The notes beneath the pieces are model-generated. The model was not told the DNA's origin. It did no database searches and saw only the letters and a program-made list of their open reading frames with translations. From Thelephora terrestris (lineage: Eukaryota; Basidiomycota; Agaricomycetes; Thelephorales; Thelephoraceae), in contig WIUZ02000009.1 in NCBI GenBank assembly GCA_015956445.1, positions 558,001 through 622,000 of the forward strand: a DNA stretch of 64,000 nt. Direction: 5' to 3'. Below are positions 9,345 through 56,788 of this stretch, in pieces. The translations under genes were made by a program, and so were the position numbers. Every line of letters begins with the position of its first letter. The stretch's first letter is position 1.

Positions 9345-12300
9345 TTAAAACTCACCATTAGGGTCTGGCCCATCAGAGAAAGGCGCCTTGCTCATGGCTG
9401 CCATGATCATGCTGAGAACTTGTCGACAGTCCCCAACGTCCTCCTCACGCCCAAGCTTCTGGAAAGTATCCGCAGCACGAGAAACTTCGGACGCCGCTTG
9501 TTCGAGCCTACCCTCGCAGTACCACACCTCCGCCTGTAACTCCATCAGTTGAGCCAGCCAGAGGACGTTGTTGACGGCACGCAGTTTGGCCCGTTCGAGG
9601 TGAGTGTTCGCCTCGTCGAACCTTTGTTCCTGGAAGAACACCGACGCCAGGGAGTGATGACTCCGAAACGCTTCCTCGTCCCAATCGTGAGAGGATGCGA
9701 TTCCAAGAGCCACCTCGAAATGTTCTGTGGCCTTCTCCCAATTTCCCATGGTGAGATAAACGTTGCCAAGGCCGCGATGACATCTACAGGCCTCGAGTTG
9801 TTCGATGTTCTCCGGGAGCAGGGTTATCGCGCGGGATGCTGTCTCCTCTGCGGCATCTAGTTGGTCATTCCGACGCAAAAGCTCAGCAAGCTGGGCCAAA
9901 CAACGGGCTTGGCCGACTGAATCCTTGAGATCTTTGAAGATCTTCAATGCTTCTTCTGCCCGTTGCACCTGTTCTTCAAGGGTCAACGAGCGGGTGACAC
10001 AACCCGAGTTGAGCAATGTCACAGCAACCGAATGAAGATCCCCCCGATCCCTCCAGAGCTCGAGCGCGTGAGCGAGCAGCCGTTCGTTTCCCAAGCAATC
10101 CCCAACTAGCCTTGCTAACGTTGAGAGCCTGAACAAACATCCCGGCTTCGAGGGATGGTCATCGGGCAGCCGCTCGATCTTTGGTCCCAGGATGATATGT
10201 CGTGGTTTGTACCACTGGAGGAGATCCATGAAACTGGCACAGGTACCCCAGACATTGACTGTGTCTGGATCGATAGATGTGAGGACATCAAGTAGGTACT
10301 CGACGTTCACATCCTCCGACGCGATCCACCGGGCTTCTCCAAAGTCGGGCCCCTCGGGATCCAAAGGAATCGACAATCGGGTGAAGTAACAATCCTTCGT
10401 CATGCAGAGAAGTGGAGAGGACAGGGGATCCTTGGGAGAAAGATAATCGCGAAGTGGCGCGAGCATCTTGATGAATCCTTCGCTTCGATACGCCAGAGAG
10501 AGGATGCAGAATTTGTCAAATATGACATCCCTGTTCGAAATGGCCGGAAAAAACCAGTCGAGGTTCCTCTCATCGACGCCTTGAGGAAAGAAAGCAACGA
10601 CCCCGAGAAGCTCTCGGGCGCCAAGGCCAAGCTCCTAGAACATCGGGGATGCAAGTGAAAGCTCGATCGTCGCCGCGAGGCTCTTGTTGTGCTCCGTCTG
10701 CAGTACGCCCGTCCGGCGATTCTCCCACTCTCTGGTCAGACGATCGATTCCCCGCTTGCTCTGATGTGCAACGGTAGCGAGCAACGTAATCGACAGTGGG
10801 TGGAAGTCGAGTGTTTCGAGGATGTTGTTAGCCGAATCTGACTGTTTCCCGTGGTCGTAGATGTGGTAGAAGGCGCTGCATGCAGCCTCCCTCGACAATG
10901 TTGGGACTTCGAGAGTCTTGCAGTTGGAAGGAATGATGGAGATCCGAGAGGTAATAAACAGCCAGATGTTACTGAACTCGCTGAGCTCCTCTATTGCAGA
11001 GTAAACCTCATCGGAGTGATGTCCCTGCGGATCAAGTATCGACTCGGCGTTGTCGAGGACTATCAGGATTTCTTTCGATGATAGGAACGGTCGGAGGGAT
11101 ACCAAGCCATGAGGATTTTCGACGGATGCACCAATGACCTCGGAGAGCCGGCGGAGGAAGTGGGTGAGAGAGGCAGGAAACTGGTCACAGCGAATGAATC
11201 TACGATCGTCGCCAAAGCGTTGTTTGATGCGGTCGTCGTGGAGGACTGTTAAAGCGATGGACGTCTTGCCGATTCCACCAGCACCAGTCAGGGCAACTGG
11301 CGTGAGGTGCTCTGCGAAGCCAACGATTTTCTCGATTAATTCGTGACGTCCAAAGAAGATCCTTGGCGGTCGAGGCGGAGATTCTCCAGATACGCTAGAT
11401 GAGATCATGAGGTGACGAATACCTCGGAATCATACAACAGCTGCTAACCTGTTTTGAGTCTGGGGAGTGGTCACTGTTTGTTCGGAGATATTGAAGAGTT
11501 CTCATATCGCTTACTGCTAGATTTTGACCCCTATTATTTTAATGACTTTTTAGGGCACGGTGCATTTCCTCAATTTCGCCCTGAAGTCTGGAAACAGCGG
11601 TCCGGGTTTTCAGGACGTTGGAGTGGATATCCGGAATTGACCCAGATATTACTCTTGGTGGCGGAGCCGGTGATTCACCAGGTGCACTAGATGTAGATTA
11701 TTAGACACCGAATCTTCGACGAGTGAGGTTGCTGACCTGGCGTAAGTCTTCTCATGACCGTTTAAGGTATTGTGGTAAATTGAGGTGCGGGCGTGATATC
11801 GCACCTCAGGAATGGCGGGGTGGGTACCTGCAGCGTTCTGGTGATCGGTAGAAATGGCCATATTCGTGCTCGAGGCATCATGGCGGGCTTCAGGAATGAC
11901 GATGCCGGCATTCAAAACATCTTTGGGGACGGCGGGGTGGGTGTTCGAGACGCTGTGGTGAACGCCGGGGATGTTTACGTCGGTGTCTATTGCGAATTCG
12001 GTCTGGTGGTGGAAGGTCAGTAATCTTCAGACAGAAGCGAAGGTACGCGCCTCGAGATCACGGCGAAACCTTTCAAGGTCTGACCTCCAAGTGGAAATCG
12101 CCTTTTTATCGTCTTTTTTGTGGAGATGTTGAGAGATCGGATTCCGTTTACCCCACTCAACGATCTGCCTCTGGATTTCGGTCACGGTCCTGGGATTGGA
12201 AGTTCGGTGAGTAGAATGAACTTTGTATGCGTCGTAGGCCCAACTCACATCGACAGTTGGTTAATCCCTTTGAGGGCAGCTTGACTGGGCTGCCCCGCCT

Positions 12301-12569
12301 GGCTTTCACTCACCCTCCGGGCAAGGACTTGGTAGGCGTCGGCGCAGATCAGCCCTAGTTCGACGCAGTCCGGTTTGTTGATCATCGAGCCCTACATAGA
12401 TCAGCCAACAATGAACGCGGGCAAGGAGGACACCCACTTTGATTGAAGTGAGAAGCACGATCGCTGGGCCGAACGCGTCCTTGGCTGGTTTTGAAGTGAT
12501 TGCGTCCCTCGCAAGGTCCAGGGCGTCGATTGCAGCATTCAAGGAGGAGAGATGATCGTCGCGTCCCAT
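9345..12569 (-). pseudogene. STAND NTPase (NB-ARC + TPR) with in-frame stop
   Basis: Agaricomycete STAND protein related to NLR-type receptors. An N-terminal helical module lies in exons from 12569 (DHLSSLNAAIDALDLARDA) to about 11500. The NTPase begins near 11408 with [16 protein letters not shown], Walker [13 protein letters not shown], Walker [11 protein letters not shown] and the sensor region WLFITSR. From about 10000 down to 9345 come TPR-like helical repeats, for example the pair AEEALKIFKDL and CLAQLAELLRRNDQL. The frame is interrupted by TAG at 10635-10637 between LASPMF and ELGLGARELLGVVAFFPQG, where related proteins as I remember them have Gln, so a CAG-to-TAG change is likely; the frame is otherwise continuous. 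Another in-frame TAA near 11540 lies in the linker and may mean a missed intron or further decay. The same N-terminal module occurs in the gene at 43360. Confidence 0.8.
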
Positions 12570-32624: not shown

Positions 32625-35600
32625 ATGTCCGAAGACCCAACGAACGATGAAGAAGAGCGCCCAGCAAAGAGGTTCAAGGTCTGCTAGCCAAAAATGTTGT
32701 GATACGGTTGATAGAACCCGTATTTCTCAGCATCTCTCGTACAAGCAAAGCCTGAAAGATGTCCATCTGCCCTCCGCTTTGGAGCAGTCACGTTTTGACG
32801 AAGATATTGCAGTAAGGATCATTTGGGATCCCAAGCCTCGTGCAATCTGACGGAGAATACAGGATAATGATTCGCATTTCCACCAAGCAATTGACCACTG
32901 GCGGCAACTGAACCTTGCTCCGAGCTTTATTAAATTTGCGAACAAGGCCGACGGTCTCTCTGCATCTATGCCGTTATTGCTTCATCACCACAGTCAGATT
33001 GTGGAGCTATGGATTGCTGCGCTGGATGCTGGGGACAGCGAGGCTTTGAAGCCCTTACTCGAGTAAGCCTCACCATCCCAACCCTAACTCTTCTACCCTG
33101 AACCATACCCAGCCTCCTCCAGAAGTTAGCGCACGACCTCCGAACAACGTTGACACCCAACTTTGAGAACCTGGTGTCGAAGCTTGTTCCCTTGCTACGT
33201 CGGGCGATACCCTCAGAGGCTCTCACCAGTCTTCTTGCGACCTTCTCCGCCCTCTTCAAGTATATCATGATCCCATCCGACGATTTCAATGTTATTCAAG
33301 AGGTCTGGGCATCGTTCCGGGAAGCCTTATTAAAGTCCAGTCCAGAAGTCCGCCAGGCAACTGCTGAGGTCTGGGGAGTACTCGTTCGGAAATTGAAGTT
33401 GCCGACTCGGAGCGAGCTTGTGACTTTGCTGGTTTCTGACTTGAACGGAGTTGAGGACTTTGTACCCTGGGTGATAGTGGATGCGTGCAAGGTGTGTTTT
33501 ACTTAGCTGTGGACCTACCGGAGATGCTCAACCCTTCGGCTAGTCTGTTGCCCAGAGTATACACACTGCTGCACCCTCCATCATTTCACAGATGTTGCGT
33601 TGTTATATCGATACACGAGCGCCCACAGACGAGCTTTACCATGTTATCCGCCGCGTCTTGACAGCGTTGATTCACAATGTTGGTACTGCAGAACAATTTA
33701 CGCCCGCCGCGACTGTGATTTTGGATATGTACAAAACTTCCGACCCCGAAAAGGTCACCAAGCTCCTCCCTGTTTTTGTTACGATTTGCTCTGTCCGGCA
33801 CGGATCCCGCCTCAGCAGTATGTCATACAACTTGGTTCACATCTCCGTCAACTCACTCATTTCACATTGGTAGCGTCACAACTCAAAGAGGTGGCTGGTA
33901 CTCTGAGCAGTATCTCGTTGACCGAGGAGAACCGCTCGCCGCTTCTCCAACTGTCCGTTTCACTGCTCATTGCAGGCGACAGTTCACTTTGGGCAACTGT
34001 TGGCAGAGAGATAATCGCCAGAAGCTGGGAAACGGACATCCCCTTTGCTATTGAGCTCTCGGCTTCCTTGTGTGAACTTGGTTGGGGTGGATGGAAATCG
34101 TTCGGCTTGCCGCCTATCCTGAAACATACACATCGTGCCCTCGAAATCACCCCCACCAGGATGTTGCGGCTGCTTGCTTGGGTGGTTGAAGAAAAAAAGT
34201 TGGCTACCGTAGATGCCGTTTGGAAGCAAAGGGTCGAAGGGTGGGTCGAGAAGAGGCTTCTAGCGGCCAATTGGCATGGTTCGGAAGATGATGTGAGTGA
34301 CAATTGCTGGGAGGGCCTTCACAGAATCGAATAACTCTTTCCAATCAGGTCAGCCACCTACGTGACATCCTAACTCTTTCACCGCTGCTTCCCAACGTGA
34401 ATAAGATGCTCGACGGAATTCTCCAGCAAGTTGTGAACACAGCTGAATCGTTGGAAGACTTTCAAAGAACCCCGTACAACGCGTCATTTGCGCTGGGAAT
34501 GTGTTTGAAATCGTTCTCTAACCAAGCGAAGTCACCGAAGCTGAACACTCCCCCCTTTGACTTGGCCGATATGTGTCAACGATGGGGCTGGTCCGAGACA
34601 GTTACGGGTTCTTTGGTATCCTTGACCACTTCAAGGTTCGTTGCAACTCTGGCAAAAATTTCGGTCCCAAGAATGACGCCATTCTAGTCCTGGATACCTG
34701 AGGCCGGCGCCGTTGGAGAGTGTCTATGCAAGCCTGAAGCAGTCTTTGCTGTCGCACTCTCAGTCATTACGGCTAAGCGTTCTGCGTATCCTTTCTTCCT
34801 CCCTTGTAACAAAATCACCTGAAGAGAGAGAGGTGATTAAGAGGTGTTTGCAATGCGAGAACACCTCCATTGATGTTCAAGGCTCTCGGGAACGTGTGCT
34901 TTGGATTGGGAGGATACCTCAGATTGTTCCAGATGGCCGTTCTGTTGCCTCCGACATTGCCGTCAACTGGTTGGTTTGTAAGCAGCATTAGTTTCAATCT
35001 AGAGCCTGCACAAATCTCACGGCATCTCGTAGCCCAGCTAAAAGTAAACCTACGACCACTGTGGGCCCCGACCATGAAAGCCCTGTCAGAACTCTCGAAA
35101 CGATGTGATCCCGTTGTCTGGTCTGCTATCCTTGAAGATTTGCGTCGGCTATCCGAGGGTCAAAGTCTCGAGTTATCTCCTGAGTGGGCGAAAGAACTCC
35201 CCGATGAAGTTGAAGACGTTATCCAAGAGGAGGAGCGTACATGGCAAGATCCTTCAGCTCACAAGATGCGCGTTACAGTTGCCAGCTGGACAAGTGACCG
35301 AGTTCCAAGGCGGAAAATTGCCAAGGTACGCTCGTCGTCACAAGCTCCAGTCGCGTATATTGAGACTGTCGACAGGTACAAATCTCCAATGACAGGTTTG
35401 ATCCAACGTCTTACCACACGCAACTCCTTGGGACATTGGGCGAGTCTTCATCTCTCGCGGAAAAGCACAACCGCGATCTCATCCCATTGTTCCTATCAAC
35501 CATTCCCGACCATGACTCCCCTGCAAAGAACGATCGACGCAAGTTGACATTATGGCTGACTTTGTTCTCCAAATTTCCCAACCCAAAGGCACTGTATGCG

Positions 35601-38600
35601 ACAGGGGATCTCCGGTCACTTTACACCACGCTATTGTCACATCCAGACAGAACCCTCCAACGACTGGCGCTGAAGTGCATTTTGACTTATCGTTCCCCAC
35701 ATCTCACACCCCATCAAGATATCCTCACGGGGTTATTAGACGACACGCGGTGGAGAGACGAACTCACGAAGCTCAATCTGGACGAAATCGATGACAAGGA
35801 CCGACCGGAATTTGTTGAGACCTTTATCCGACTGCTGTACGGGTTGATGCTGGAGAAGCGAGGAAACTCGAAGACAGGGGAGCGGCGGGGAGCAGTGATT
35901 CATTCATTTGCGGGATGTCGTGATGAAGAGCTTGGACTCCTCGTCGAACTGATGCTCGGTTCCCTTCGCAGGGAGAATCCTCTGGATGCAGAGGGGCAGT
36001 ATACGAACGAGCCTGTGCCGGAGCCATTTTTGGAAGCGCAGCAGGTCGGGTACCTGAACTTGCTTGATGTTGTCCTGAAGAACCTGGGTTCCCGCCTCCT
36101 TCCCTTCTGGCCTGCTCTACTTGGCGGGACTTTGGACATACTTGCCCACGCGCAACAGCGAATCGAAACGGAGAAGCACGATGCCGAAGCACTGGAACCT
36201 GAGGAGGAACTGGAGGAAGATTCCAAAGTACCCACAAATACCACGAGGTCCCTCAAGGCCATCAGGCAGCTCTCGCTGAAACGATTTGCCCAATTCTGCA
36301 AATCCCCCGTGGAGTTCGACTTCTCGCCCTTCATCCGTACCGTGTTCCGAACCGCCATTTCCTCTCGTTTGTCTGTCCTTGCACAGGAGAACTCTCAAAG
36401 CCCTTCCGCACTCCTCGAACTCTTTTACGTTTGGACTGCGAAACCAGAGCAGGCGATTTTCTTGACCACCATCGACCACAGAACTCTTCCGAACATATAC
36501 GACTGCATGGTTTCTGCGAACGTCAAGCCCACGGTAATATCCAAAGTTCTCGATATTGTCGAAGCGTTGCTGGCCATATCTTCTTCGGATGAAGAGGTGT
36601 CGAGGCTCGTACTAAAACCGTACATCCCGAAACTTCTCGAAAACTTGGCCACGGCTGTCGAAAGGAGTAAGGACGTAGCTGCCGCGTCCAATGTTCTCGG
36701 ACATCGACAAATCTTTATCCTCTCCGAGTTAGCCCCCCACCTATCGGATGCAAAACAGGCCACGATTTTGCTCGCTTTGTTCTCTCCTCTACTGAAGAAG
36801 CCCCCGAAGGTAGTCCCCGAGACAGTCAAGGCAAACATGATCAACATTATCTCCAACCTCTTTCCCCTTATCACGGACCTCCAAGATCCTACAAGTCCAT
36901 CCTTCCACAAGACTTTTATGCTGCTCTCACAGCTCATGCTAAGTCTTCGGACTCGACCCGCACGCTCGGCTCTGATATCTGCCAACCAAAAATTAGTGGA
37001 AGCGGACTCCTCACTATCGAACCTCTCGGGTTTGATAGATGACCTGAACGCCTACTCGACGAGGAGGGTGGATGAGCCCGATTTCGATCGCCGAATTTCT
37101 GCCTTCACGCGGCTCAACGGAGACCTTGGTCGGACTCTCTCCCTTACGCAGTGGATTCCGATACTCTACAACATGCTCCACTTTATTCAAGATGCAGAGG
37201 AGCTCGCTCTGCGAACGAACTCGGCTACGGTTCTTCGTATCTTCATCGACACGGTGTCTAAAACCTCGGACAGTGAATGGGAGGGTATCCTGGTCAAAAA
37301 CGTGTATCCGGGGCTAAAAAACGGTCTGAGGTCGAAGTACGAGTTGGTGCGCGCGGAGATTTTGGCTGTTATTGCCCACGGGGTCACTGTTTGCCGGAAT
37401 ATCCCAGCCTTTCACGAGATGCAGATACTTCTTGCGGATGGTGACGAAGAAGTCAATTTCTTCAATAACGTCCACCACATTCAGATCCACCGTAGGATTC
37501 GAGCACTCCGTAGGTTCGGAGAGTGGTGTGGAGAGGGCCAACTCAGGAGCAGCACTCTGGCGGATGTCTTCTTACCACTCATCGGGAATTACATTGGCGC
37601 AACCGACACCATCGATCACCACTTGGTCACAGAGGCCATCAATACGACCGGATCTATCGCCCACTGCCTCGCATGGGGCGCATACAACAACCTCATTCAT
37701 CAGTACCTTCGTCTGGTGAAACAGAAGGATTCGTCGGAACGTGTCTATGTACGGGCCATCGTCGCGATTTTGGACAATTTCCACTTCAATATGGATGAAC
37801 CCGTGGCTGCTGAGGAGGACGGTGATGAGAATATTAACGTGGAGGAGCTGGATGCTGCGAAGCGAGCGAAAGAGATGACGCGGATTGCGGATTCGGTACA
37901 TTCTCGGCTTCTTCCTGCCTTACTCAATCACCTCGAGCGTCGGGACGAGAACGAGGACACGATCCGGATCCCAATCGCTGTCGGAATCATCAATGTTGCC
38001 AAGCATCTTCCCGACCCCGCTCGCACGACACAGGTTACCAGGCTCTTGACCGTCCTTTCTCAAGCATTCCGAAGCAAATCCCAAGAAACCCGGGATCTCA
38101 CTCGCGATACCCTCTGTCGCATCGCAGCCACCCTCGGCCCAGAATTTCTCCCACACATCATCCGGGAACTCCGGGCCGCGCTCCTCCGTGGACCTCACCT
38201 CCATGTTCTTGCCGTCGTGACACACGCGTTACTTGTCCACCTGACATCCCCGGAGAACTCCGGGCGGTTCAAGAATTTCGACGACTGCGTGGAAGATATT
38301 GCGTATGTTTCAGCTGAGGTCATATTTGGCGAGTCAGGGAAGGATACCCAGTCCGAAGGGTTCAAGACCAAGCTACGTGAAGTCCGTTCATCGTCATCCA
38401 AGGGCCTCGACTCTTTCTCCATCCTCGCGAAACACATTACATCAGGGAAGATCAGCGCCTTGCTCCATCCCATTCGCTCAATCATGCAAGAGACCGAAAC
38501 GCTGAAGACTCTGCAGTTGATCGATGACGTACTGAAGAAGATCGCAGGTGGCATCAATTCGAACGAGCGCATATCACCTGCAGATCTCTTGTCTCTTTGT

Positions 38601-40880
38601 CAATCTTTCATCACTCAGAACGCGAAGTTCTTGCAAGTTGTCCCAGCGATCAAGAAGAACAGATCAAAGAGGGGTAGAGACTCGGCAATTGTACAACTGA
38701 AGCGTACCTCGCACGTCGACTCGAACCATTATGCGAACAACTCTTTCAGGTATGTAGGTACTTTTCCTGGGGTGAGCTACAGACTGGATAGTGTTTAGGT
38801 TCGTCGTGTTTGGGTTGGACTTATTCCATACGGCGCACAAGAGGAATCGTTTCGACTTTCAGGACCCTGACATCATTCGGCGCTTGGAACCTATGGTCAC
38901 CGTCATCGGGAATACCCTGTACTCTCAAAGCGCGCCGGTCCTGATCCTTGGGATGAGGTGTGCGGCTGCTGTTCTACAGTGCCCTCTCAAGTCTGCGGAG
39001 AAGGCATCACTCGTGGTCGTCAACCAAATTATGGAGGTCATCAGAGCCACGGGAAGCACGGAATCCGATGTCGTTCAGACAGGTCTCCGATCCCTCTCAG
39101 CCATCCTCCGCCACCATGACGAAGTTCAAGTGAAGGAAAAGGATCTCTTGTTCCTCCTCGAGTTTGTTGCTCCGGATTTGGAAGAACCTACCCGCCAAGG
39201 GACGGTTTTCGCTCTCCTCCGTGCGATCATCTCCAGGAGATTCGTTGTTCCGGAGATGTACGATCTCATGGACAACGTCTCGGAGGTGATGGTCACCAAC
39301 CAATCCCCCCAAGTACAAGAACACTGCCGGGGTATACTCTTGCAGTTCCTTCTGGAATACCCGCATGGAAAAAACCGGTTGAAGAACCAGATGACATCCT
39401 TGGCAAAAAACCTCTCCTACGTTTATGAGAGCGGGCGGAGTTCGGTGTTGGAGTTGTTGAATGCTCTCGTGAACAAGCTTGAAGTTGGCTTGGTTTACGA
39501 GTACAGTGACCTGCTCTTTGTGGCATTGGTCATGGTTATAGCCAACGACGACTCGACGAGGTGCAGGGAGATGGCGGCGGAACTGATCAAGAGCTTGTAC
39601 CTTCGCTTGGATGAATCCCGTAAAGAGACACTCGTGTCGCATCTCCATACCTGGATCTCCCAAGCTACTCAGCAACCTTTGATCCGCGTTTCGTGTCTGG
39701 TCTACGGTTTCCTCCTCCCCATCGAAGACAGTACCTCATTCTCCGATACGCTGTTGGAAGATGTCAACTCTCTCTTGGAGCGAAGTTCCGAATTTGAGGA
39801 GATGGAGGAGGGAGACGGGGAAGATGAGACGTTGGGAAAGGACACGTGGCAAACCCCCTATCAGGCTTTGACGGTGCTGACCAAACTACTTGCGAAAAAT
39901 CCGGAACTCGCCCAGGACCACTCTCGTATCAGTTGGTCACACGTTGTCCCGCTCTTGTTGTACCCCCATGCCTGGGTTCGCGCCGCGTCCTGTCGTTTGC
40001 TGGGAACTATGCTGGCGACTGTTCCTGCAACGGCGCCTCGGGGGAATGTCCCGTCAGAGGCTTCCGAATCGCCTCGACTTTTCACGAGGGAGTGGATGGA
40101 GCTGGTGACTCAGAAACTGTGTATGCAGTTGAAGAGCGAATATCTTGGAGAGGACCTTAGCCTTCACATCGTCAAGAACCTGTTTTACTTCGGCAGATGC
40201 TTCTCTCACATTCCGTTCCCGAGCACCGATGGCAGTGGCGCCAACGACGAGGGTTCCGATGAAGCACAGCAAGATCCGACGGAGGATAAAGGGGGACATC
40301 CGCTACGGTGGCTATTCTCGAGACTGTCGTTCCAGGCCCGTTCCGCGTATATCGCGCGCCGCAACAAGGCCTTTGTTTCCGTGGGTCCTCACCTCGTCTC
40401 GTCACGTTATGACATAAACTCACGGCCCTGCTCTAGCACGATTGGTCGCGCCAGCCTTCGGCAATTCTGAAGTGGTTTGCAGCGATGACAACGCATTTGA
40501 GCGCTGAGGTCGTCGAGACGTTCCTTGTTCATGTTCTCACACCTGTTTATCGGATCACAGAGGATGACAGCGTTCGTGATCCCCGAATGGGTGAGTATCT
40601 CACCACCCTCCAGATCTGGTCCCCGACTGATGATCGTACAGAGGAGTTGAAGCTTACAGCGATCGAGCTGCAGGACATGGTTCGTTCGAAAGTGGGAGGC
40701 AATAAATTCGCGGAGGTCTATAACTGCATACGGCAAGGAGTTATTGATGTACAGAGGGAGAGGAGGGTCGCTCGAACGCTGCAACATACCACGAACCCGG
40801 AAGCGGCGGCGAAACGGAAGATCCAGAGGAATGTGGCGAAGAAGGGGAGTCGGAAGAGGAAGGACGCCGTGTTTTTGTGA
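32625..40880 (+). CDS. UTP20: U3 snoRNP / SSU processome HEAT protein Utp20
   Basis: Giant nucleolar HEAT-repeat protein of the small-subunit processome, needed for 18S rRNA maturation. Start at 32625 (MSEDPTNDEEERPAKR); the first intron begins within the AGG codon, giving PAKRTRISQHLSYKQ. Succeeding exons carry HFHQAIDHWRQLNL, LLLHHHSQIVELWIAALD, LAHDLRTTLTPNFENL, then the DRIM-type region in the long exon 35436-38754 (DRTLQRLALKCILTYRSPHL, GLLDDTRWRDELTKLNL, FVETFIRLLYGLMLEKRG, LGSRLLPFWPALL). The tail holds VFGLDLFHTAHKRNRFDF, a run of HEAT-like helices, HDWSRQPSAILKWFAAM, and ends in KRKIQRNVAKKGSRKRKD, the basic C-terminus typical of the family. Length is about 2,600 residues, normal for Utp20. 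About a dozen small introns. It looks intact. Confidence 0.93.
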
Positions 40881-42440: not shown

Positions 42441-43359
42441 GCGCCTATATTCCGATTCGTTTGTGTGCGGGCACTCTTTGTACGCTTCTGTTCCGCTCCT
42501 GCTTTCTTGTTCCATATAGTTCCACCTGTGCATTTTCACTTGATTTGGTCACGCGTTACAATATCCGCCCCTTCCAGGGCGAATCCCATGCAGTTTTTTC
42601 CCCCTCTTTCATTCGTACTTTGTGTGCTTTCTTCACAATCGTTTGTCACGACACTCCTTATGCTCTACTCATAGTGTTTGTATATTCCAGCATAGTTTCG
42701 AACTACCTCTTCCGGTTTCCTCTTTCATGGTGTTAATAGTGTAAGCGATATATCTGATGGTTTACGTGGACAGTCACTCGTACACCGTGGCGATAGACTT
42801 TGAACTATCATTGTGTTCTCATGTCCAAACCGGCCGACGCCGCGATGTCGTGGACATGACCAGAAACTCAAGTAAATCTTTGGGCAGAGCTTTATCTGAC
42901 CACAAAATTACGCCTCATCATGAGCCACATATCGTTCCAGCCCCCGCCCTGATCTAACGACGAGTTCGGCGTACTAGTGTTGTACTTCGGCGATCACCGC
43001 AATCGAGTTGGCCAAGGATTGTAGTGCTCTTCTAGTACGACCGCCCATTCTTCCAAGCTTTCATCTCACAGTTGAGGTACCTTGGATCTTGGAGGTCCTT
43101 GTGAAACGAACCATAATCATGCAGTGGGTACTAGTTAACCCAGCGGGATTGAAAAGCATCAAGAACGTGCAAACTTGTTTGACACAGTAGGTAAGAACGT
43201 TGATGTTTGAATAAGAGAACATGGCTAACCTACAAACCTTACTAAATGGATGTACTCGCGCGACGAATAAGATGCCAACCTAGACGCTCACTCCCAACGT
43301 AGATTGAGCCCCCGTGACCGACACTCGCCCCACCCTGCTTTCTCCTCGCTATCTCGACG
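42441..43359. other. Intergenic, no gene seen
   Basis: T-rich 3' flank then promoter of the fusion gene. Nothing coding recognised. Confidence 0.5.
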
Positions 43360-46300
43360 ATGGAAGCCAAGCTCCAACGACAGAAGGAGCGCGAAAGCGC
43401 CCTCTCCTCTTTGAACAAGGCCATTGGTGCCTTGGATCTCGCGGGGGACGACAAGGGCACGAAACCGGCCAAGGAAGCTTTTGACTCAGCTAGTTTACTT
43501 CTCGCTGCAATCAGAGTGAGTTCCTTTTTAATTCGTCCTGGTCCATTGTTGGCTGATGTGTGCAGGACTCGGTGATTGACAAGGCTGACTGTGTCGAACT
43601 GGGAATCATCTGTGCTGAGGCGTGTCAAGCCCTTGACCGGGGGTTAAGAGGAAGACGGGCGGATCAGCACAGTCCGTCCGTCCTCGATGCTATTTACCGA
43701 TTGAATATGTGGGTTCACTCAGCGACGCATGCGCCGGAAGTTTGACTCACCAACCTATTGGCACCAGGACTATGGCCGAGATTAAGGGGCACGTCGTCAA
43801 GCGAGGTAAACGGAACGCGATTGCTCAACGGTTTCACGCAAAGAACGATAAAGAGGCGGTCGCCTCTTGGAAGTTGAGACTTGTAATGATTCGTGGTATC
43901 TTTGAAGTGTGTTGCTCCGCTTCTGTCTGACGACTGTTGACCTTCGGCCCCTAGGCCGAACTCGCAATCAGTGCCGATGTAGATGACAATCAATGTGGCG
44001 CTTCGGATACCCAGAATCTTCCCGACCCTGTCGACGTCAGCGCCAGTGCTTCAGCCATTCATCGCGACGTGGGGGAGAACTATGGGGACAAATACGCACG
44101 TCCCTCGGTAAGCGCTTGATCTCTATCAGTCACAGAATAAACACTTACCACTACTCAGACATACGCCAGGTCAGCGATATATACTATCCATCACCCACGT
44201 GTCTGACAATATCACCTAGCGCACCCGACGAGTCATTACCTCCACTGGCAAGAATCTCTCCTCGAGCCATTTCAACGGATGTCCGTCACGATGTTGTGAA
44301 AACCCGCACCATGGTTTCCCAGGTTCAGCGTGAAGTTGGGGATACCCATTCCATAGTCACCGAGATACATCAAAACCTCTTGAAAATCCGCGAGAATAAC
44401 GGCCATCAAAGTAGAGCAGCCACTTCAGGAGTCAAATCGAGCAGCACTTATATGGCAATCAACAACTACCATACCATTACCCCACGAAGCAATATCTCCG
44501 CAGTCGTACACGGGCTAATTAGAGTCTTCTACCAAGCACTTGATGGCACCATCCTTCGGGGAGAGTGGTCAAATTGCCGATGGTCCCACTTTCGCCACCA
44601 GCACATCGACGCCGTCCCTTTGACCCCGCTGGCTTGTACCAGTTGGATGCAAGACAAAGAGGTGAGAAAATCTCCCCATTTCTTGTGCGCGGCCTAATTA
44701 ATATAAGGGTAGATCCGCATGTACTACCTCGACCGCCAGTACATTCTTCAAGAGTATTGTTACTCTGAAGGTGTCGGTTGGTACGCCGGAGATGTCGGCA
44801 AGATGAATTGTAGAGCATCTACCGATACCCGGCTGAGTGCTGTTAACTTCTGTGATCCCGAGGGAGGCATCAATGTTCGAGTCTATTATCAGGGTGAGCA
44901 TTACCTGTCCCCAGAGCGTTGCCCATCCATTGAAACAGCTAGAAGAGCCTGGGTCCCAGGCCATTGTAGAATTGCGCAACGACGGTTACTGGACCAAAGG
45001 AAATCGCTTGCTAGATGCGCTTGACGGTACAAGCATCGCTGCAGTGGCAATGAATTGGAACGGAGGAATCACAATACGCGTTTACTACCAAGCCGAAGAT
45101 TTATCCCTTAAGGAATATTGTCATGACAGTGGCCGCGGGCAATACCCAGGTCAGTTCCTCGTTGCAATTAAGTCTCATCTTTGCCAGAGAAATTGAAATA
45201 CTGTCAAAGGCGAATGGAACCATGGGAAGGCACCAAGTAGAAGTCCCATCAATGCTGCGGCCCACGAGATCGATGGAGAGTTATGCATTTGGGTGTGCTG
45301 GCGTAATCACCAAGAAGAGATCGTCATCAACAAGTACCACCGCTTCTGGGGTCCTGTTACCAGGGTTGTGAGAAGCGTCCCGTCTGACTCCCAGTTTGCC
45401 TTAGTGCAGTGGGTGGACGGGAAGTACACCCAACTCAGGCTCTACTACCAGAACGACGCGAATTTGGTGTGCGAACAATGTAGTGACGACGGCGGCGACA
45501 ACTGGTGGTCAGGCTACAAGTGGGGTGCCACCCGAAAAGTCGTCCTCCAATTACCCCATTATGCCCGTTTCTTCAAAGACGAACAAAACCTCCCTCAGCA
45601 TGAACTTTCCTTGCCCTCACCGGAAGGAAAGGATGGCCGTTATCTGTGGGTCTCGAACCAGCATAGTGGTACGCTCTCACAATTTAATATGCCCATTGTG
45701 AAGCTGATGGTGTGGCAACAGGTTTTGGATGGGGAAACATCTTTGGGCCTCTGTAAGTCTCGACTATAGGTGTCATCACAGGTAGCTAAACTCTGGGGCA
45801 GATGCATGATGTCCTTGGTTGCATACCTTTCAAATCGAGCGTGAGTTTTTTCCAAATCTTTTATCTGAATTTTTCCGATGAACACGGACTTGCAGCTTTG
45901 TGTTTGAACCTTATACATGGCATGTGGGCGACGAGCCATATGTAGAGCATAAGCATGAGAAACGGCTTATAGTCTCTCGTGTTCCCCTCACGGCATTGAT
46001 CTCCGGTACACAGCTCCTTTCCTATTCCTCCTAGGTCTTCTCACTGACGCCCTCCTTGGACTCACCACAGGGCCGTTGGCTGGAGGGTCATTTCCCGCTG
46101 GGGATAACCATCCTCGTTCTGTCAACAAAGAATTTTACAAGCAAGTTTCCGAAGGAAGGGATGTTGCTCACTTGAGCATCAAAGAGCTCAACGAAGGGCT
46201 TGAGGGCAGACCCGCCATAGAAATTCTGGAGAAATATGTCCAGGCCCTGAAAGATGCTTCGGAAGATTGTGTAGAGCTTTTTGGCTCTAGGGAACACCCG

Positions 46301-47201
46301 TTCGACTACATGTGCGTTTGTTTGCTCCATGCTTGCACTGTTTATATTTGTGTGGTGCCTTATCTGATTTCCGCTCAATGTAGACAATTTGGGGATGCCG
46401 AAATTCAGACGGTCTATAAGCAACTCTCCGAGTCTCCTTTCATTACAGAATTCAACTGGTCTTCTCTGGTTCTCTCTGCCCTTGGTCATAATACCTCCAT
46501 CATTTGTCCCCTCCTTCCCAAGTCAGGTCTTGATCTGTCGGACCCTGAACTCAAATTTGCTGATCCCGTAGAGATCGCCTCTGTGCTGCCACACTACATC
46601 CCAGACCTCCTCGTCCTTCACGTTCGTCGAGGAGACTATGAGAGGCACTGGCATTTTCTGTGCACATGCAACTCTCTCTTCTGCGGCTGGAACCGGGTTC
46701 CGGGAATGGGCGATGTTTTCAATCCCAAGGAAGAAGAGGGCACCAAGGAGGAGATTTACAAGAAGCATGCATACCCCTCTGATGAGCAGATTGTGAAGAA
46801 AGTTGGTGAAGTGCGTGAGAAATGGGAAACTGGGCAGCAGGGTGAAAGAAAGCTCTGTCGGCTGTACATTGCCACTAATGGAACACAGGAAGAAACCGCA
46901 AAACTGAAGAAAGCTTTGCGGCAGGCTGGAGCCTGGGATGTAATTGCATCGACGTACGACTTGGCACTTGACCATGAACAACAGTATGTTGCATATGCCA
47001 TTGACTCTGCGATTGCGGAGCGGGCAGGTGTGTTCATTGGTACAGGGGTAAGTAGATGCTCTCTGATTGGTGGCTGTTTTTGAGTACTGACATCTGAGTG
47101 GTGGAATCCTTGTGTTCCCATAGTTCTCAAGCATGTCAGCAAACATTAACTTCATGCGTAGGGTGCATGGGCTTCCTCTTCAAAGTAGTCGATTCTGGTA
47201 A
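43360..47201 (+). CDS. STAND-type N-terminal module + fucose lectin + O-fucosyltransferase-like fusion
   Basis: Fifteen exons: 43360-43515, 43566-43708, 43768-43906, 43955-44107, 44159-44169, 44220-44661, 44713-44893, 44943-45149, 45210-45668, 45722-45752, 45802-45840, 45896-46005, 46071-46311, 46384-47047, 47124-47201. They sum to 3054 nt, exactly 1017 residues plus stop. Residues 1-290: helical module shared with the STAND NTPase at 9345-12569 (ALSSLNKAIGALDLAGDD, then DVRHDVVKTRTMVSQVQ). About 293-585: six blades of an Aleuria-type fucose lectin, with fucose-ligand Arg and Glu in several (IRMYYL/QEYC, IRVYYQ/KEYC, LRLYYQ/CEQC). About 595-1017: GDP-fucose O-fucosyltransferase-like, with SNQHSGFGWGN, HVRRGDYERH and the C-terminal FIGTGFSSMSANI. 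The exon 45210-45668 runs through blades 5-6 straight into LPHYARFFKDEQNLPQHEL of the transferase with no stop. No signal peptide; likely cytosolic unless exported unconventionally. Confidence 0.85.
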
Positions 47202-47843
47202 ATTTTCATGATCCTTACATTGTAATTGTTATTTGTAACATGGTTTGAATGGCATCTATGACATACAATTCAATTAAGTTAATATGAGCAATCAGGCAAT
47301 GCATTTGGCAGGTTCTGCTGGCCAGGTGGATCTCTTGTCTATAAAGATAAAGAGCAATCCTGGTTTTGAGCTGACAATTGAACCATCAAGAGGAGCAATG
47401 TAATCACTACAGATAGACAACAGGAAAGTGATGAAGAAGAAGAAGAAGAAATTGAAATTGAGAGAGAAAATAGCAATGCCAGCTCTGAGGACCAGAGAGA
47501 TTTAGGATGGTCTTTGAGGAGTTTGCTTGACAGTTGCGCCTTAGGAGCAGAAGGGAGTTATGGAGTCAGTAAACAACTTGAAAGCAAGTACAAATTCACC
47601 CACTTGGCAGAACCCAAAAAATGCAGGAGTTCCTCAGACATGAGGATGTAGAACATTTTGGGTAGCTAATACTTCCCCATCCATTCATTCGTTCACCCAA
47701 ATTACAATCAGTTGGAGCAATCAAAATTCACGTACACCACTCACAATAAATGTCATCTAGAAGAAAATAACCCCATACTGATGAATCTGACAACTTGCTG
47801 AATGACCAGCTATATGGTACTTAATGCAGGCTTTCTACACACC
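47202..47843. other. AT-rich intergenic region with acidic open frame
   Basis: Noticeably more AT-rich than its surroundings. A plus-strand frame from about 47410 to 47651 starts within a gaa-repeat run of glutamates (SDEEEEEEIEIEREN) and continues with DLGWSLRSLLDSCALGAE and YKFTHLAEPKK; it has no good start and I do not recognise it. It could be a fragment of a mobile element or of a lost gene. Confidence 0.35.
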
Positions 47844-49588
47844 TTATTCTTCCGTATACTCCTCTTGACAGCAATCCACTATAGTGACCCATTGCCCCAA
47901 CTCCTCCGCCATCCCATCTGGAAGACTCCACATGCGGACCATCACACACTCGAAGGGCACCCCCAGTGTGTACTGTGAAAAGGCAAGTTCCTTGATTGCA
48001 TCCATACATTCCATCTCATCAACATCCATCACTGGGTGTAAGATTACAAGCTCCCTAATTGATGGGAACACAATGGGTTGCTCCATGTCATGAAACACTG
48101 GGTCGTCTAGGAAGGTGGCAAGGAATACATGTAAATCGCACCCACAGATGGTCAACTCGTCCAAGGGCCCCAATGAATGGAACAGGTCCCGAACTTTGTC
48201 CACCACAGCCAGCATACCAAATGTGTGTGGAGCGGCAGCTCTGTATTTGATGCGGAGACGTTTGATGTGCGATATTAGGGGGTGATCCCGGATGGTCGTG
48301 AGGGCTTGAGAGAAAATCTCCCAGCTCTTCTCAGCACGGGGAATTTTTATCACGTCCCTGTCTGCATCCGTCTCTGCAACATCAAAACCCAATCTAAAGG
48401 TCGTCGCATCGGAGGTCCGGAAGGTGAGGAGACTTCCAATGTTATCATCAGAGTCATCTATCTCAAGTGTGACTTCCTCAATCAGGTTGGTCATGTGCTG
48501 GTGAACGATTTTGTCCCACAAAACAGGGGTGGGAAACATCTCCAGGAAGAGACTCATGTCTCTGTCAACTATCTCGCATGTCAGCACCATTTGTTTAGCG
48601 CAAGGACACGAAATCTGGGCTCCAATATCGTATACCCGTGTCGTGGGGAGATCGAGCACACACAAGGAGAAGGTCTCGGCATTGGGAAGGACAACGACCA
48701 TTTCCTGCGGGACGTCCTGCATCAAAATATCCGCAGAGATCTTCACTTTGACCAATTGCAACGTAGGCGAGGCTTTCAGAAAGTCGAGTAGGTATAAGGC
48801 ACTGTATCCCCCTCCCGGTACTGAAAATAGCTCGAACGTGGTGAGATTTGGAAAGGAAAATTGGTTCAACAAGGAAAGCATCCAGGTATGGAAGACGAAT
48901 TGTTCCAGATTGATGGAGCCACTGAAGAGGGTATACGAGGGAGGGGCGACACCGACGGGTTGACCGTCTGAATATTTATTGTCGGGGTGAATGATTTTGA
49001 GGGTGCGGAGGGGAGGATTGAATGCAGAGAATGTTACGATGTCTTGCCAGCGGTTGTATCTGAATTCAAGGTGCCTGATTTGCTGAGCGCGAGGGGAAAT
49101 GAGAGTTATGGTGCCGACGGGATCATCGCGATGGGCAACGACATCTAGCGCAGACCCTTTCGCGCGTTCGAGGAGGGTTGACACGCACTCTTCGCCCTTT
49201 TTGAGGAACATCTGTGACCAAATTGCGCTCTGATTGAGGAGAACCCCACGCCAATGGCGGCACACAGAAGCGGCATGGAAATGATCCTTCTGGGAAGTGA
49301 GGTGGGTTGGGATAAGGGAAAGAATATCGATCGGGATGCAGTTGACGCGAACGAAGGAGTTCCTCCACTCGCGAATGGACGCTAACGCAGTTGAACCATC
49401 CCGGTCGAGTTGAGAGACGGCCTCCAAAGTGAAACTGCAGAGGTGATCAGCATGTCGTTCCCCAATTAGTTCGAAATTATGTTTTAGACATACAGCGGAG
49501 AATATGCCACCCGCTTCAACTCTTCGTTGAAAGCGAAGATGAGCTGCGAAACCGATAGGCCCCTTCCGGGGTAAGTATGTGTGTCCAT
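47844..49588 (-). CDS. F-box protein, local family member C
   Basis: Start at 49588 (MDTHTYPGRGLSVSQLIFAF); a 95-nt exon, 59-nt intron (gtatgt...aactaat...tgcag) and long exon give 1686 nt, 561 residues. Without the intron the first exon would end in a stop, so splicing is supported. FTLEAVSQLDRDGS leads into F-box IPIDILSLIPTHL, CRHWRG, IWSQM. Family landmarks follow: LLDFLKASPTLQLV, VVVLPNAETFSL, LGPLDELTICGCDLHVF, FPSIRELVILHPV. It diverges from members A, B and D and is the closest relative of the decayed copy at 57028-57850. The likely role is SCF substrate recognition. Confidence 0.87.
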
Positions 49589-50042
49589 CGGAGAGGCGGG
49601 GAGCCTGGAGACTTGACGGCGGAACCTTGGATGTAAGCGCGTGAGAAGGAACAGCCACACGTTTCTGCCCTTCGTACCCACACCTCTGACGCCCACGATC
49701 CTCTAACACCAAGGAATATTGCAAATCGACGAGTTGAAGCTCAACAACCTAGGCTTGAGTCTCAAAGCCCAAAACCTTGCTGGTGACGTTGAGGTCGTTT
49801 GCAAGGTCAGGCACCCATGCGAACCGAAAACAAACCGTTTTCGAGCGCAAAACCGCGGACCCAATCCTCTCGATCTAGGGTCGGGGGGATTACCTCTTCT
49901 TCTCTCCGCCCCCTTATCGAGCCCTTCAAACACTGCATTCTTGTGTCACTGGAGCGTCCTACTCTCATAGATTCGGAAATGCTATGAAGACTACAAGGAC
50001 GCCAAGACTTCCTAGTATCACAGCCCTGACAGTGCTATTTCT

Positions 50043-51675: not shown

Positions 51676-52893
51676 ATGCCTATCTGGAGCAGACGAAAGG
51701 CAGTCGTTCCCCCGCCGTATCGACGTATGTCACCCCCTTACGGGTGGAGTCGATGACTAACGGTTCTCTATGTCAGGTACCTCGATAATAAGCGGGATAA
51801 CGCAAGATGAGCAAGACGCAATTTGGAGAGAAACCCGGGATGCTCTGCGGGATATCTACATCTCATACAATGCTCGGTCGGGGCAGTGGACTAAAGTCGC
51901 GAAGAAGATGTGCGAAATACTCTACCTCATGGATGTGACGGAAACCCTTTTGGCGGGGCACCCAGGGAGGACGGCGGAGGAGGGTAGCCGGGAGCGATTG
52001 TATGACATCTCATCGATCTCCCTATGATCATAGTGTTGATTCTCCCTTTCAGCAGTTTCTTGGTTCGTTCATGAGCATGGCACCGCCTCGATGCTAATGA
52101 GGATCTCAGACAGATCAAATGTCGAAGTACTTGGAGATCAACATCCTGGTGACGGAAATGAAGGTGAGTGCTCTCATTGCGGGTCCAAACAAAAGAAGTA
52201 ACCTCTCCACAGCTCGAAGGTCAGAATATATCTCGCTTTTGGAGACAGGGGATCTGATGCGAGACCTTGGTAGCTGAAATGACCGCCCTCGGTTGTATAT
52301 GGGAGGCCCTGCATCAGCCCGGCGATAGTAGGGTTTGCGGCGAGGGGACCCGCGATGGAGTTATTCTCGGGATCAAGCTCTGGGCGCAGGACCCCAATGG
52401 GCCTTCCATCTGCTGGTTGACAGGAATCGGTCGGACGGGGAAGAGCACCATCGCGCGGACAATTGCAGAACACATGTCGGAGGATAGACTGCTCGGGGCG
52501 TCCTTCTTCTGCTCTCGTTACTCCAAAGACCGAAGCAACCTCCTTTCCATATTCCCTACAGTCGCCTACCAGCTCGCACGCAAGTACCCCAAGTTTCGGG
52601 CGGCCATGGTAATTCGCAAGAAATATACGACCTTCCAAGACCTGGTAGACGATCTGATCGTTCAACCCCTGACGAAGTCCGCCATCTCAACCGTGATTAT
52701 CATCGATGCTCTAGACGAGTGCAAAGGCGGGGAAAGCCTCATCCCTATCCTTGGGCAAATTGTATCCGAGTCTCCTGGAGTCAAGTTCTTGATCACCAGT
52801 CGCCGAGAGCAGGGGATTCGAAGCGGGTTCAACCGTATAGGCGGATCGAGGGTTCACGAGTTTGACCTCGACCGCGAGACGGGTACTTCTTAG
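51676..52893 (+). pseudogene. Truncated NACHT-type STAND NTPase
   Basis: The NACHT core is clear: SICWLTGIGRTGKSTIARTI (Walker A, with Arg-Thr where most relatives have Ala-Gly-Thr), LLGASFFCSRYSKDRSNL, IFPTVAYQLARKYPKFRAA, Walker B VIIIDALDECKGGES and VKFLITSRRE. It ends soon after, at VHEFDLDRETGTS, where relatives go on with the winged-helix and repeat domains. The upstream part starts at 51676 (MPIWSRRKAVVPPPYR), with an intron at 51725-51776, then a helical region; the join to the NACHT region runs through conflicting frames around 52200-52270. I read it as a decayed NLR-like gene; a short NACHT-only protein from 52267 is possible. Confidence 0.65.
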
Positions 52894-55053: not shown

Positions 55054-56788
55054 CTATCTCGGGCCCCACTCCTCAGGTTCTCCACGCAGCTGCTCACAAC
55101 GATATTCCACACCACCGACCCATGGCTTCAGTTCCTCCTCCAGCTCCTCAAGCATCTCAACACTCCGAATCACTATACGCTCAAAAGGCATTCCCCGCGC
55201 GTGCTGTAATTTTGCGAGCACCACGACCTCCGTCTCGTACTCAGACAAGTTGATCGGGTGCGAGAGTGTGAGCTTCTTGGTCGATGGGAATAAAACTAAT
55301 CTCTCGTTTACGCCTCTTCGGAAGAGAGGGAGGTACGGTTGTAGGTCGCAATGGTAGATCGTCACTTCATCCAGGGGACCCAGGGAGTTCAATAGTCGCC
55401 CGACTTCAATGGCAAACCTTGAGTCATCGATGAACGTAGGGCGGAAAGTATGGCAGATGTGGAGGCGTTTGACGTTGGCTAGCTGTGGGTAATTGAGGAT
55501 AGTTCGGGTGGCCTGAGCAAAGATTTCTGGAATCCACCATCCTATGCCGTCCCCGCCAAGTTCGTCCAAGCTGATGGGAACTTCTCTGAAACCGAAGCTA
55601 ATGGTGGTCGAATCGGGGGACCCGAAGGTGATATTACATGTAAGGGAGGCACGGCCGGGCCTTATCTCCAGTGTGGCTTCCTCTGCCGGAATTCTCGTGT
55701 ACTGGTGAACGATTGCGTTGCAAAAAACCGAAGGGGGAAATATTTCTCCCGGGACCATGTTGATCCTGGACTTGAGCACGATCGATGTGACTCTCGCGGA
55801 AGGACATTGTATGTGGGCCGCCATCTCGTGGCCGGGTACAATATTGCCCACGACCAGCGTGAACCTCTCCACATTGGGAAGGGAAATGACCCTTTCTTGA
55901 GGTATTTCTTCCAGCGATGATATGTACGCGAGGACCTCCATATTTACTATTTGCAGCATCGGTGAACCTTCCAAGAAATCGAGTAGCCGCGGAGCACAGA
56001 AGATGCCATGTACCATCGATATATCGAACGAGACGAGGTTCGGAACAACGAGGTGGAGTACGAACGGTGACTGAAACGAGGTTGAATTGAAGCGGAGCAC
56101 CTTCAGATTTATGGCGTTGTTGAAGAGCATACTCTCGAAATCGTCCATATCGTCTTCCTCCGGGATATCTTCCACGTGATCGATTGTGAGGGTGTGCAAG
56201 AGCGGGAATGGTCCAGGAGTCGCTTCTGAAAACTTCTGGATGTCCAGCCATCCACTGCGCAAAAAAACAAGAGTTCTGATTTGTTTGGTGAGGGAAGAAA
56301 GTGGGATCATCGTTCTGACGGGAACTTCGCGGTCGACGATGATATCCAGTGCGGAGCCTTTCGCGCGTTCGAGGAAAATCTTGACGTAAGCCTCGCCCTT
56401 CGAAAGGGATAACTCGGACCATAACTCGGCACATTGAATGGAGGTTCTGCGCCAATGACGGCATACGAATCCAGCACGGTGACGCTCCTTTTGAGAGGGT
56501 AGATAGGCGAAGATGAGGGAAAGTATTTCAAGCGGGATACTACTGTTTATGGGAATGAACGAGTTCCTCCATTCGCGTATGGTCGCCAACGTGGCCGAGG
56601 TATCGAGGTCCAGTTGAGACACCTGATCAAATGTGAACCTGCGGATGAGAGTCGGCGTGTCGTTCTTCAAACTATCAATGATCTTATACATACGACGAAG
56701 AATATGCTGTGTACTTCAGCTCCTCGCTGAGAGCAGAGACGAGCTGTGAAAGGGACAAGCCCTTTCCGTGATAAGTTTGTGGGCTCAT
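55054..56788 (-). CDS. F-box protein, local family member D
   Basis: Start at 56788 (MSPQTYHGKGLSLSQLVSAL); 95-nt first exon, 55-nt intron (gtatgt...gccgac...cgcag), long second exon; 1680 nt, 559 residues. FTFDQVSQLDLDTS leads into the F-box SIPLEILSLIFAYLPSQKER, CRHWRRTS, LWSELSLSKGEA. Family landmarks: FSEATPGPFPLLHTLTID, LLDFLEGSPMLQIV, RVISLPNVERFTLVV, VKRLHICHTF, LGPLDEVTIYHCDLQPY, LTLSHPINL, MPFERIVIRS. It is most like members A and B. Likely an SCF substrate adaptor; target unknown. Confidence 0.88.

What the first reader, a model, noticed from the sequence alone, without database searches (positions are those of the whole stretch)
43360..47201. Three-domain fusion: NLR-type module + fucose-binding propeller + fucosyltransferase
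Seen: a 15-exon model of exactly 1018 codons in which one exon (45210-45668) carries lectin blades 5-6 and the start of the transferase without a stop. Known: Aleuria-type lectins bind fucose, and HxRRGD-containing O-fucosyltransferases use GDP-fucose; I know them as separate proteins. Inferred: the protein reads and writes the same sugar, and its N-terminal module may tie this to STAND-type signalling. I am not aware of a described system with this arrangement.
Basis: partly seen in the sequence, partly recalled or inferred. Interest (0 to 1): 0.92.

Follow-up and report, generated by a model that had tools for sequence, protein, structure and literature searches.

The report
NLR-module, fucose lectin, fucosyltransferase fusion
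A fungal gene appears to encode one protein that joins a module borrowed from an immune-receptor-like gene, a fucose-binding lectin and a fucose-adding enzyme, so it may both recognise and attach the same sugar; the parts are known kinds, the combination looks new, and its function is untested.

Summary
The gene model holds: 15 exons at 43360-47201 (+), 1018 codons with the stop, 14 of 14 introns GT-AG. Residues 290-563 match the Aleuria-type lectin profile (PF07938, 1.2e-35) and 847-1006 match O-FucT (PF10250, 1.2e-8, above its cut-off); the transferase's N-terminal half matches nothing. Both junctions lie inside single open exons (6 and 9) and exon 9 has no in-frame Met, so separate genes are unlikely. 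New here: exons 1-3 are homologous in DNA (68.7% over 571 bases, E 1e-51) to the start of a STAND/TPR gene 31 kb away on the other strand (nSTAND1 2.5e-6, TPR_12 6e-16). 'NLR-type' is thus supported by descent, although that neighbour has in-frame stops. Fucose-site Arg and Glu positions persist in four of six blades; some POFUT2 key positions persist. Structure prediction was uninformative, and no fungal proteome could be searched. I commit to a cytosolic fucose reader-writer with an NLR-derived N-terminus: architecture likely, mechanism inferred.

The parts
43360..47201 (+). Whole fusion gene, 15 exons, 1017 aa plus stop
   Evidence: open spliced frame, 14 of 14 introns GT-AG, 48-76 nt
43360..44352 (+). 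N-terminal NLR-type module, residues 1-245 (exons 1-5 and the start of exon 6); strong homology over exons 1-3, weak over exon 4, a linker motif in exon 6
   Evidence: homologous to the start of the STAND/TPR gene at 12569-9348 (-); 72 of 147 aligned core codons identical in amino acid; no named family
44220..44661 (+). Exon 6: one open exon carrying the end of the NLR-type linker, a tail of about 40 residues and lectin blade 1
   Evidence: the junction between module 1 and the lectin lies inside an exon
44473..45523 (+). Aleuria-type lectin, residues 286-582 by my reading (profile match 290-563); six blade motifs at residues 301, 349, 403, 453, 502, 553
   Evidence: PF07938 1.2e-35 on the whole protein and 1.4e-36 on the lectin alone; AAL 1iub 6.8e-26
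45210..45668 (+). Exon 9: blades 5-6, linker 583-616 and the presumed transferase start, residues 478-630; no in-frame Met
45626..47201 (+). O-fucosyltransferase-type domain, residues 617-1017; HVRRGD 850-855, D978, S994
   Evidence: PF10250 on residues 847-1006; weak POFUT2 alignment, E 0.53; N-terminal half unmatched
11547..12569 (-). Paralogous N-terminal module of the neighbouring STAND/TPR gene (exons placed by hand by analogy with the fusion; third donor is GC)
9348..11429 (-). STAND NTPase (10638-11429) and TPR (9348-10634) parts of that neighbour; in-frame stop at 10635-10637, another upstream at 11539-11541

Best explanation
A chimeric, probably cytosolic protein. A copy of the N-terminal module of a STAND/TPR (NLR-like) gene was joined, inside an exon, to an Aleuria-type fucose-binding propeller that is itself joined to an O-fucosyltransferase-type domain. 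Most likely mechanism: the propeller docks the enzyme on fucosylated acceptors (reading), the transferase adds further fucose from cytosolic GDP-fucose (writing), and the NLR-derived N-terminal module oligomerises the protein or couples it to NLR-type partners that carry the same module. Shown: the open gene model, the lectin homology, the O-FucT C-terminal half and the shared descent of the N-module. Inferred: activity, ligand, location, oligomerisation and any link to signalling.
For: Open model and exon-internal junctions. Lectin PF07938 1.2e-35, AAL 6.8e-26. Blades 2, 3, 4 and 6 keep the Arg of the R-x-Y strand and the Glu 12 residues on (my reading; blades 1-4 against AAL; the site pattern is recalled). 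O-FucT 1.2e-8 on the whole protein, 4.8e-10 on the C-terminal half. Of the POFUT2 residues named in PMC10481521, D371 and S387 align to D978 and S994 (with an assumed numbering offset of 21) and R294 corresponds to the HVRRGD Arg (recalled motif). N-module: DNA 68.7% over 571 bases to the STAND/TPR gene; 4 of its 5 introns have a counterpart at an equivalent position in the neighbour, whose exons I placed by analogy. Best 19-residue hydropathy 1.32, no signal-like N-terminus. De novo GDP-fucose synthesis is probable in representatives of Dikarya (PMC10481521, passage).
Against: No transcript or protein. The transferase N-terminal half (618-849) matches no family and 616-696 no solved O-fucosyltransferase; the POFUT2 alignment alone is not significant (E 0.53), and T388 and F389 become Ser and Met. 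Blade 1 has Arg where AAL has Glu; blade 5 has Cys where the others have Arg. Fold predictions were poor (pLDDT 48.5 and 56.5); the fold search of the exon 9 model had 0 matches at E 0.001 or better and no propeller among the 50 listed. The neighbour has in-frame stops and a GC donor, so it may be a relic and not a working partner. None of the four aligned intron pairs (55.9-72.9%) exceeds the best of 100 random 50-base pairs (78.9%), and exon 4 is near chance at 50.4%. dN/dS of the shared core depends on method: 0.33/0.95 (NG86), 0.41/0.57 (YN00). Codon bias of the lectin part is slightly negative. 0 relatives in 3 scans of 2 non-fungal collections, which says nothing about fungi.
Confidence: 0.45

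Rival explanations
1. All-in-one recognition receptor: the lectin is the sensor (of a glycan or a partner protein), the N-terminal module is the output (cell death or signalling), and the transferase is an accessory or a second sensor.
For: In Podospora het-B a HET cell-death domain is fused to a C-terminal lectin fold that sets recognition specificity (PMC10890737, abstract and sections 8 and 13). Fungal NLRs show combinatorial assortment of N-terminal, NTPase and repeat domains (PMC4986451, passages), and Goodbye/HeLo/MLKL-like domains make up 23% of basidiomycete NLR N-termini (PMC9815663, passages). The N-module is shared with a STAND gene.
Against: The fusion's module matches no HeLo, HET or MLKL profile (0 families at E 5). 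The het-B lectin is an FB-type fold, not Aleuria-type. Keeping enzyme-like residues suggests that catalysis matters.
Confidence: 0.25
2. Cytoplasmic chimerolectin for defence against fungal feeders or competitors: the lectin targets fucosylated glycans of the attacker and the enzyme acts there.
For: Aleuria lectin is reported as nematotoxic, insecticidal and active against a zygomycete, and MOA is a lectin-protease chimera (PMC6272156, passages).
Against: The two fungal chimerolectins described in those passages (MOA, LSL) carry no NLR-type module; a transferase would need a GDP-sugar donor inside the victim (inference).
Confidence: 0.08
3. Young non-functional chimera: duplication pasted an NLR start in front of a lectin-transferase gene and the product is decaying.
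For: The source paralogue looks degenerate; two of six lectin blades lack site residues; the transferase N-half is unrecognised; the lectin's codon bias is slightly negative.
Against: 1017 codons are open with 14 GT-AG introns; codon bias favours the model frame in 12 of 15 exons; at 68.7% identity to its paralogue the module has diverged enough for stops to have accumulated had there been no constraint (inference).
Confidence: 0.12
4. Two or three separate genes merged by the model.
For: No cDNA; retention of intron 9 gives a stop at 45767; Met 279 could start a lectin and Met 643 a truncated transferase; the only AATAAA or ATTAAA in 43000-47700 lies inside intron 4, at 44136.
Against: No stop between modules in exons 6 and 9; no Met in exon 9; a start at Met 643 would drop the Gly-rich motif at 630-636.
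Confidence: 0.1

Closest known systems
Aleuria aurantia lectin family (AAL, FleA; Pfam PF07938)
   Same: Homology over profile positions 4-276 of 299 and six blade motifs; AAL 6.8e-26, FleA 9.9e-21
   Different: AAL itself is a hololectin (PMC6272156, passage); here the lectin is fused at both ends, and Arg and Glu are kept in only four of six blades
GDP-fucose protein O-fucosyltransferases (PF10250; POFUT2 the nearest solved chain)
   Same: C-terminal half, HxRRGD, and the D371 and S387 equivalents
   Different: N-terminal half unmatched; fused to a lectin; no signal peptide or membrane span seen
Polypeptide GalNAc-transferases with a lectin domain
   Same: An enzyme that adds a sugar carries a lectin domain that modulates its preference for already glycosylated substrates (PMC5716993, start of abstract in a listing)
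   Different: Different folds, sugar and compartment (recalled); no NLR-type module
Podospora HET-B BH (HET + HAD + lectin fold)
   Same: Fungal non-self-recognition protein with an immune-type N-terminus and a C-terminal lectin fold
   Different: FB-type lectin fold, HET domain, no enzyme described
NWD2/HET-S type STAND-effector pairs
   Same: A STAND gene and a nearby non-STAND gene share a homologous interaction region (PMC3321046, abstract)
   Different: There the shared part is a prion-forming motif in immediately adjacent genes; here it is a longer N-terminal module, 31 kb apart, with the STAND copy doubtful

Membership tests
Aleuria-type fucose lectin | PF07938 match above the gathering score | tested here: met
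   123.8 bits against 25.3; 126.9 on the lectin alone
Aleuria-type fucose lectin | six-bladed propeller | tested here: inconclusive
   six strand motifs by sequence; the profile match stops at residue 563, within blade 6; the single-exon model of blades 5-6 was poor and matched no propeller
Aleuria-type fucose lectin | Arg and Glu of the fucose sites | tested here: inconclusive
   kept in blades 2, 3, 4 and 6; altered in 1 and 5 (reading; pattern recalled; blades 5 and 6 not aligned to AAL)
O-fucosyltransferase (PF10250) | profile match above the gathering score | tested here: met
   35.4 bits against 31.5 on the whole protein, 40.0 on the C-terminal half; covers only profile positions 180-326 of 326
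O-fucosyltransferase (PF10250) | N-terminal half of the domain | tested here: not met
   0 families for residues 618-849 and for 616-696; no O-FucT chain in the PDB search with 616-696
O-fucosyltransferase (PF10250) | residues named for POFUT2: R294, D371, S387, T388, F389, E54, P53 | tested here: inconclusive
   D371 and S387 kept, T388 to Ser, F389 to Met in an alignment of E 0.53 with an assumed numbering offset; R294 by recalled motif only; E54 and P53 lie outside that alignment
O-fucosyltransferase (PF10250) | GDP-fucose transfer | not testable with these tools
   needs an assay
Fungal NLR | central STAND NTPase (NB-ARC or NACHT) in the protein itself | tested here: not met
   no NTPase profile on the 1017 residues at E 1; the protein is not an NLR, it only shares an NLR-type N-terminus
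Fungal NLR N-terminal module | homology to the N-terminus of a STAND gene | tested here: met
   one neighbouring gene, itself with in-frame stops
MLKL/HeLo-like four-helix bundle | profile or fold match | tested here: inconclusive
   no such profile for either copy (the neighbour's copy had 3 unrelated matches, best E 0.075, all below cut-off), no PDB sequence match (one unrelated hit, E 2.3); fold not predicted, because the spliced module is not one contiguous window translation

The most novel reading that the evidence does not exclude
A fucose reader-writer wired into NLR-type signalling: a fungal protein whose lectin recognises fucosylated targets in the cytosol, whose transferase adds more fucose to them, and whose N-terminus, taken from a STAND receptor, recruits or mimics the receptor's oligomer, so that a glycan mark is both sensed and amplified as an immune or self-recognition signal.
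Probability: 0.2. Interest if true: 0.88.

Novelty: new variant of a known kind. Interest (0 to 1): 0.6.

Why it matters
Lectin-guided glycosyltransferases are known for GalNAc, and lectin folds act in fungal self-recognition, but I found no description of a fucose lectin fused to a fucosyltransferase, nor of either behind an NLR-type N-terminus, in the listed rows of seven searches of one open-licence library. If the protein is active, it would link cytosolic fucosylation to NLR-type signalling in fungi and give a compact, testable reader-writer for one sugar.

Tried and rejected
Whole-genome search of the source: none is held. Relatives: two viral-contig scans (transferase: 4 pattern stretches; lectin: 2) and one genome-contig scan (transferase: 27) gave 0 confirmed relatives. 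These scans look for exact short peptides in collections that are not fungal, so the prevalence of the fusion could not be tested. Structure prediction: exon 14 (pLDDT 48.5) and exon 9 (56.5), single sequence, too poor to use; the fold search of the exon 9 model gave 585 matches at E 10 or better and 0 at 0.001. The strand pattern of the exon 9 model is compatible with two blades but is not counted as evidence. The exon 14 model was not searched.

Two-gene reading: rejected as unlikely (no stop between modules, no Met in exon 9), not excluded without cDNA. NLR membership of the whole protein: rejected (no NTPase profile). MLKL/HeLo membership of the module: a recalled resemblance only; tests found nothing. 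The second NACHT gene near 52 kb as source of the module: the fusion had no match there in the window-wide tblastn at E 1.

Paper searches for the combination: of 9, 25, 118, 1, 93, 191 and 17 papers that held enough terms, 9, 20, 15, 1, 25, 10 and 10 were listed and seen as title and abstract start. PF07938 with PF10250 returned one paper, the survey of fungal fucose proteins PMC10481521, whose main text has 0 occurrences of fused, fusion or multidomain. The fungal lectin survey PMC8227253 had 0 of fused, multidomain, NACHT or glycosyltransferase. The chimerolectin review PMC12355970 had 0 of glycosyltransferase or NLR. Supplements were not available. PMC12881547 and PMC3192844 were read as passages and gave no such protein.
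Full report
What is there. A CTRAY branch-like motif is present in 8 of 14 introns. One exon is only 11 nt (44159-44169) and is needed to keep the frame; its last bases and the following donor resemble the neighbour gene at the same point. Codon bias trained on nine other open frames of the window (5229 codons) prefers the model frame in 12 of 15 exons; exons 10, 11 and 15 do not. By segment, the share of 1000 random segments that score as high is 4.1% for the N-module, 51% for the tail 246-285, 8.7% for the lectin (total -7.9 bits), 10% for the linker, 68% for the 14 codons after it and 2.9% for the rest of the transferase. So codon bias is supporting, not decisive; the homologies carry the case.

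Lectin. Residues 290-563 match Pfam Fungal_lectin with E 1.2e-35, over profile positions 4-276 of 299, and AAL (1iub) with 6.8e-26 for the lectin alone, where the printed AAL alignments cover blades 1-4 and FleA (4agi) reaches residue 561. Six strand motifs of the R-x-Y type lie at 301, 349, 403, 453, 502 and 553; my outer limits of 286 and 582 are a reading of these motifs. Read against AAL for blades 1-4, and by internal comparison for 5 and 6, blades 2, 3, 4 and 6 keep Arg and the following Glu. Blade 1 has Arg in place of Glu, and blade 5 has Cys in place of Arg. The Arg/Glu rule for the fucose site is recalled, not taken from a call. Fucose binding at up to four sites is therefore plausible but untested.

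Transferase. Pfam O-FucT covers residues 847-1006 with E 1.2e-8 on the whole protein (35.4 bits, cut-off 31.5), 2.4e-9 on the transferase alone and 4.8e-10 on the C-terminal half. The N-terminal half, residues 618-849, matched no family, and residues 616-696 matched no family and no solved O-fucosyltransferase. POFUT2 (4ap5) was the best of two PDB hits for the transferase, but at E 0.53; that alignment places D978 on D371 and S994 on S387 (chain numbering with an assumed offset of 21), with T388 and F389 replaced by Ser and Met. PMC10481521 (section on fucosylation) names these residues and R294, and reports eight O-FucT subfamilies in which the E54 position is kept only in some. HVRRGD at 850-855 supplies the R294 equivalent (recalled motif).

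Why one gene. Both joins lie within single open exons. Exon 6 (44220-44661) passes from the NLR-type linker through a tail of about 40 residues into blade 1, and exon 9 (45210-45668) passes from blade 6 through the linker into the presumed transferase start. Exon 9 has no Met in frame, and the next Met codons, 643-644, lie behind the Gly-rich motif at 630-636. A separate lectin gene would have to retain intron 9 and end at 45767; that remains possible as an alternative transcript. The one AATAAA in 43000-47700 lies inside intron 4 (44136).

The N-terminal module. For the fusion's own copy, Pfam gave 0 families at E 5 and NCBIfam one unrelated match at 0.081, far below its cut-off; the neighbour's copy gave 3 unrelated Pfam matches, best 0.075, all below cut-off; the two-row profile gave one unrelated PDB hit at E 2.3. 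The decisive observation is inside the window: 43402-43968 aligns to 12551-11989 on the other strand at 68.7% over 571 bases, E 1e-51. That second copy begins a gene whose next parts are a STAND NTPase (nSTAND1 2.5e-6, above its cut-off; NB-ARC 1.2e-4, just below its own) and TPR repeats (TPR_12 6.3e-16). I placed the neighbour's exons by analogy with the fusion, so the equal lengths of exons 2 and 3 (143 and 139 nt) are partly by construction; the donors found there are GTGGGT, GTGAGT, GCGCGT and GTCAGC. Four of the five module introns have such a counterpart; fusion intron 4 has none. Aligned identities: exon 1 65.9%, exon 2 68.5%, exon 3 66.2%, the exon 4-5 region 50.4%, the start of exon 6 60.0%; introns 69.6%, 55.9%, 72.9% and 61.2%; upstream 100 bases 55.2%, upstream 400 bases 40.5%. 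One hundred random 50-base pairs gave 49.1% (s.d. 8.2, maximum 78.9), so no single intron stands out of that range and exon 4 is near chance. The homology is thus firm for exons 1-3 and supported in exon 6 by the shared motif SAPxES and VxKTRTxVS. Protein identity is 72 of 147 aligned codons in the core and 107 of 239 overall; the two-row alignment prints 45%. NG86 gives dN 0.33, dS 0.95 for the core and YN00 0.41, 0.57, so constraint is suggested but method-dependent. The neighbour has in-frame stops at 11539-11541 and 10635-10637 and the GC donor. Unless short introns that I did not confirm remove the stops, it is degenerate. A living receptor-partner pair inside this window is therefore doubtful, while the common origin is not.

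How it may work. The parts suggest a cytosolic protein (no signal-like N-terminus, no membrane span). Fungal precedents cover pieces of the logic: HET-B joins a cell-death domain to a lectin fold that decides recognition (PMC10890737, abstract and sections 8 and 13); NWD2 and HET-S share an interaction region between a STAND receptor and its effector (PMC3321046, abstract); fungal NLR domains assort in many combinations (PMC4986451, passages); Goodbye/HeLo/MLKL-like domains are the commonest annotated group of basidiomycete NLR N-termini (PMC9815663, passages). I commit to a lectin-guided fucosyltransferase with an NLR-derived N-terminus at 0.45. The architecture itself I would hold near 0.88; the function is inference.

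Limits. No fungal proteome or genome collection was available, no genome for the window is held, and both fold predictions were uninformative. The novelty statement rests on the listed rows of seven searches of one open-licence library and on keyword counts in three surveys.

Noticed in passing
window 9348-12569 (-): STAND (nSTAND1/NB-ARC-like) + TPR gene whose N-terminal module is shared with the fusion; it carries two in-frame stops and a GC splice donor and may be a relic.
   Followed up: yes
window 52258-52890 (+): A second STAND-type fragment: NPHP3_N 1.5e-28 and NACHT 3.5e-6; the frame closes after 211 codons, and the fusion has no tblastn match there.
   Followed up: partly
window 47847-49748 (-); also 13686-15215, 17711-19309, 20419-22212, 55057-56715 (-): Family of look-alike open frames; the one at 47847-49748 has an F-box-like domain (2.3e-6), the others resemble it by eye and were not searched; a related stretch (70% over 250 bases) joins 47727-47975 and 56920-57159.
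   Followed up: partly
window 35364-40467 (+): Two long overlapping open frames (1144 and 564 aa) upstream of the fusion; the second has weak HEAT (2.9e-4) and UTP20_C (8.8e-4) matches, both below cut-off, so perhaps a large HEAT-repeat ribosome-processing protein.
   Followed up: no
window 45669-45769 (+): Retention of intron 9 would keep the frame open for 33 more codons and end at 45767, giving an N-module + lectin protein without the transferase.
   Followed up: no
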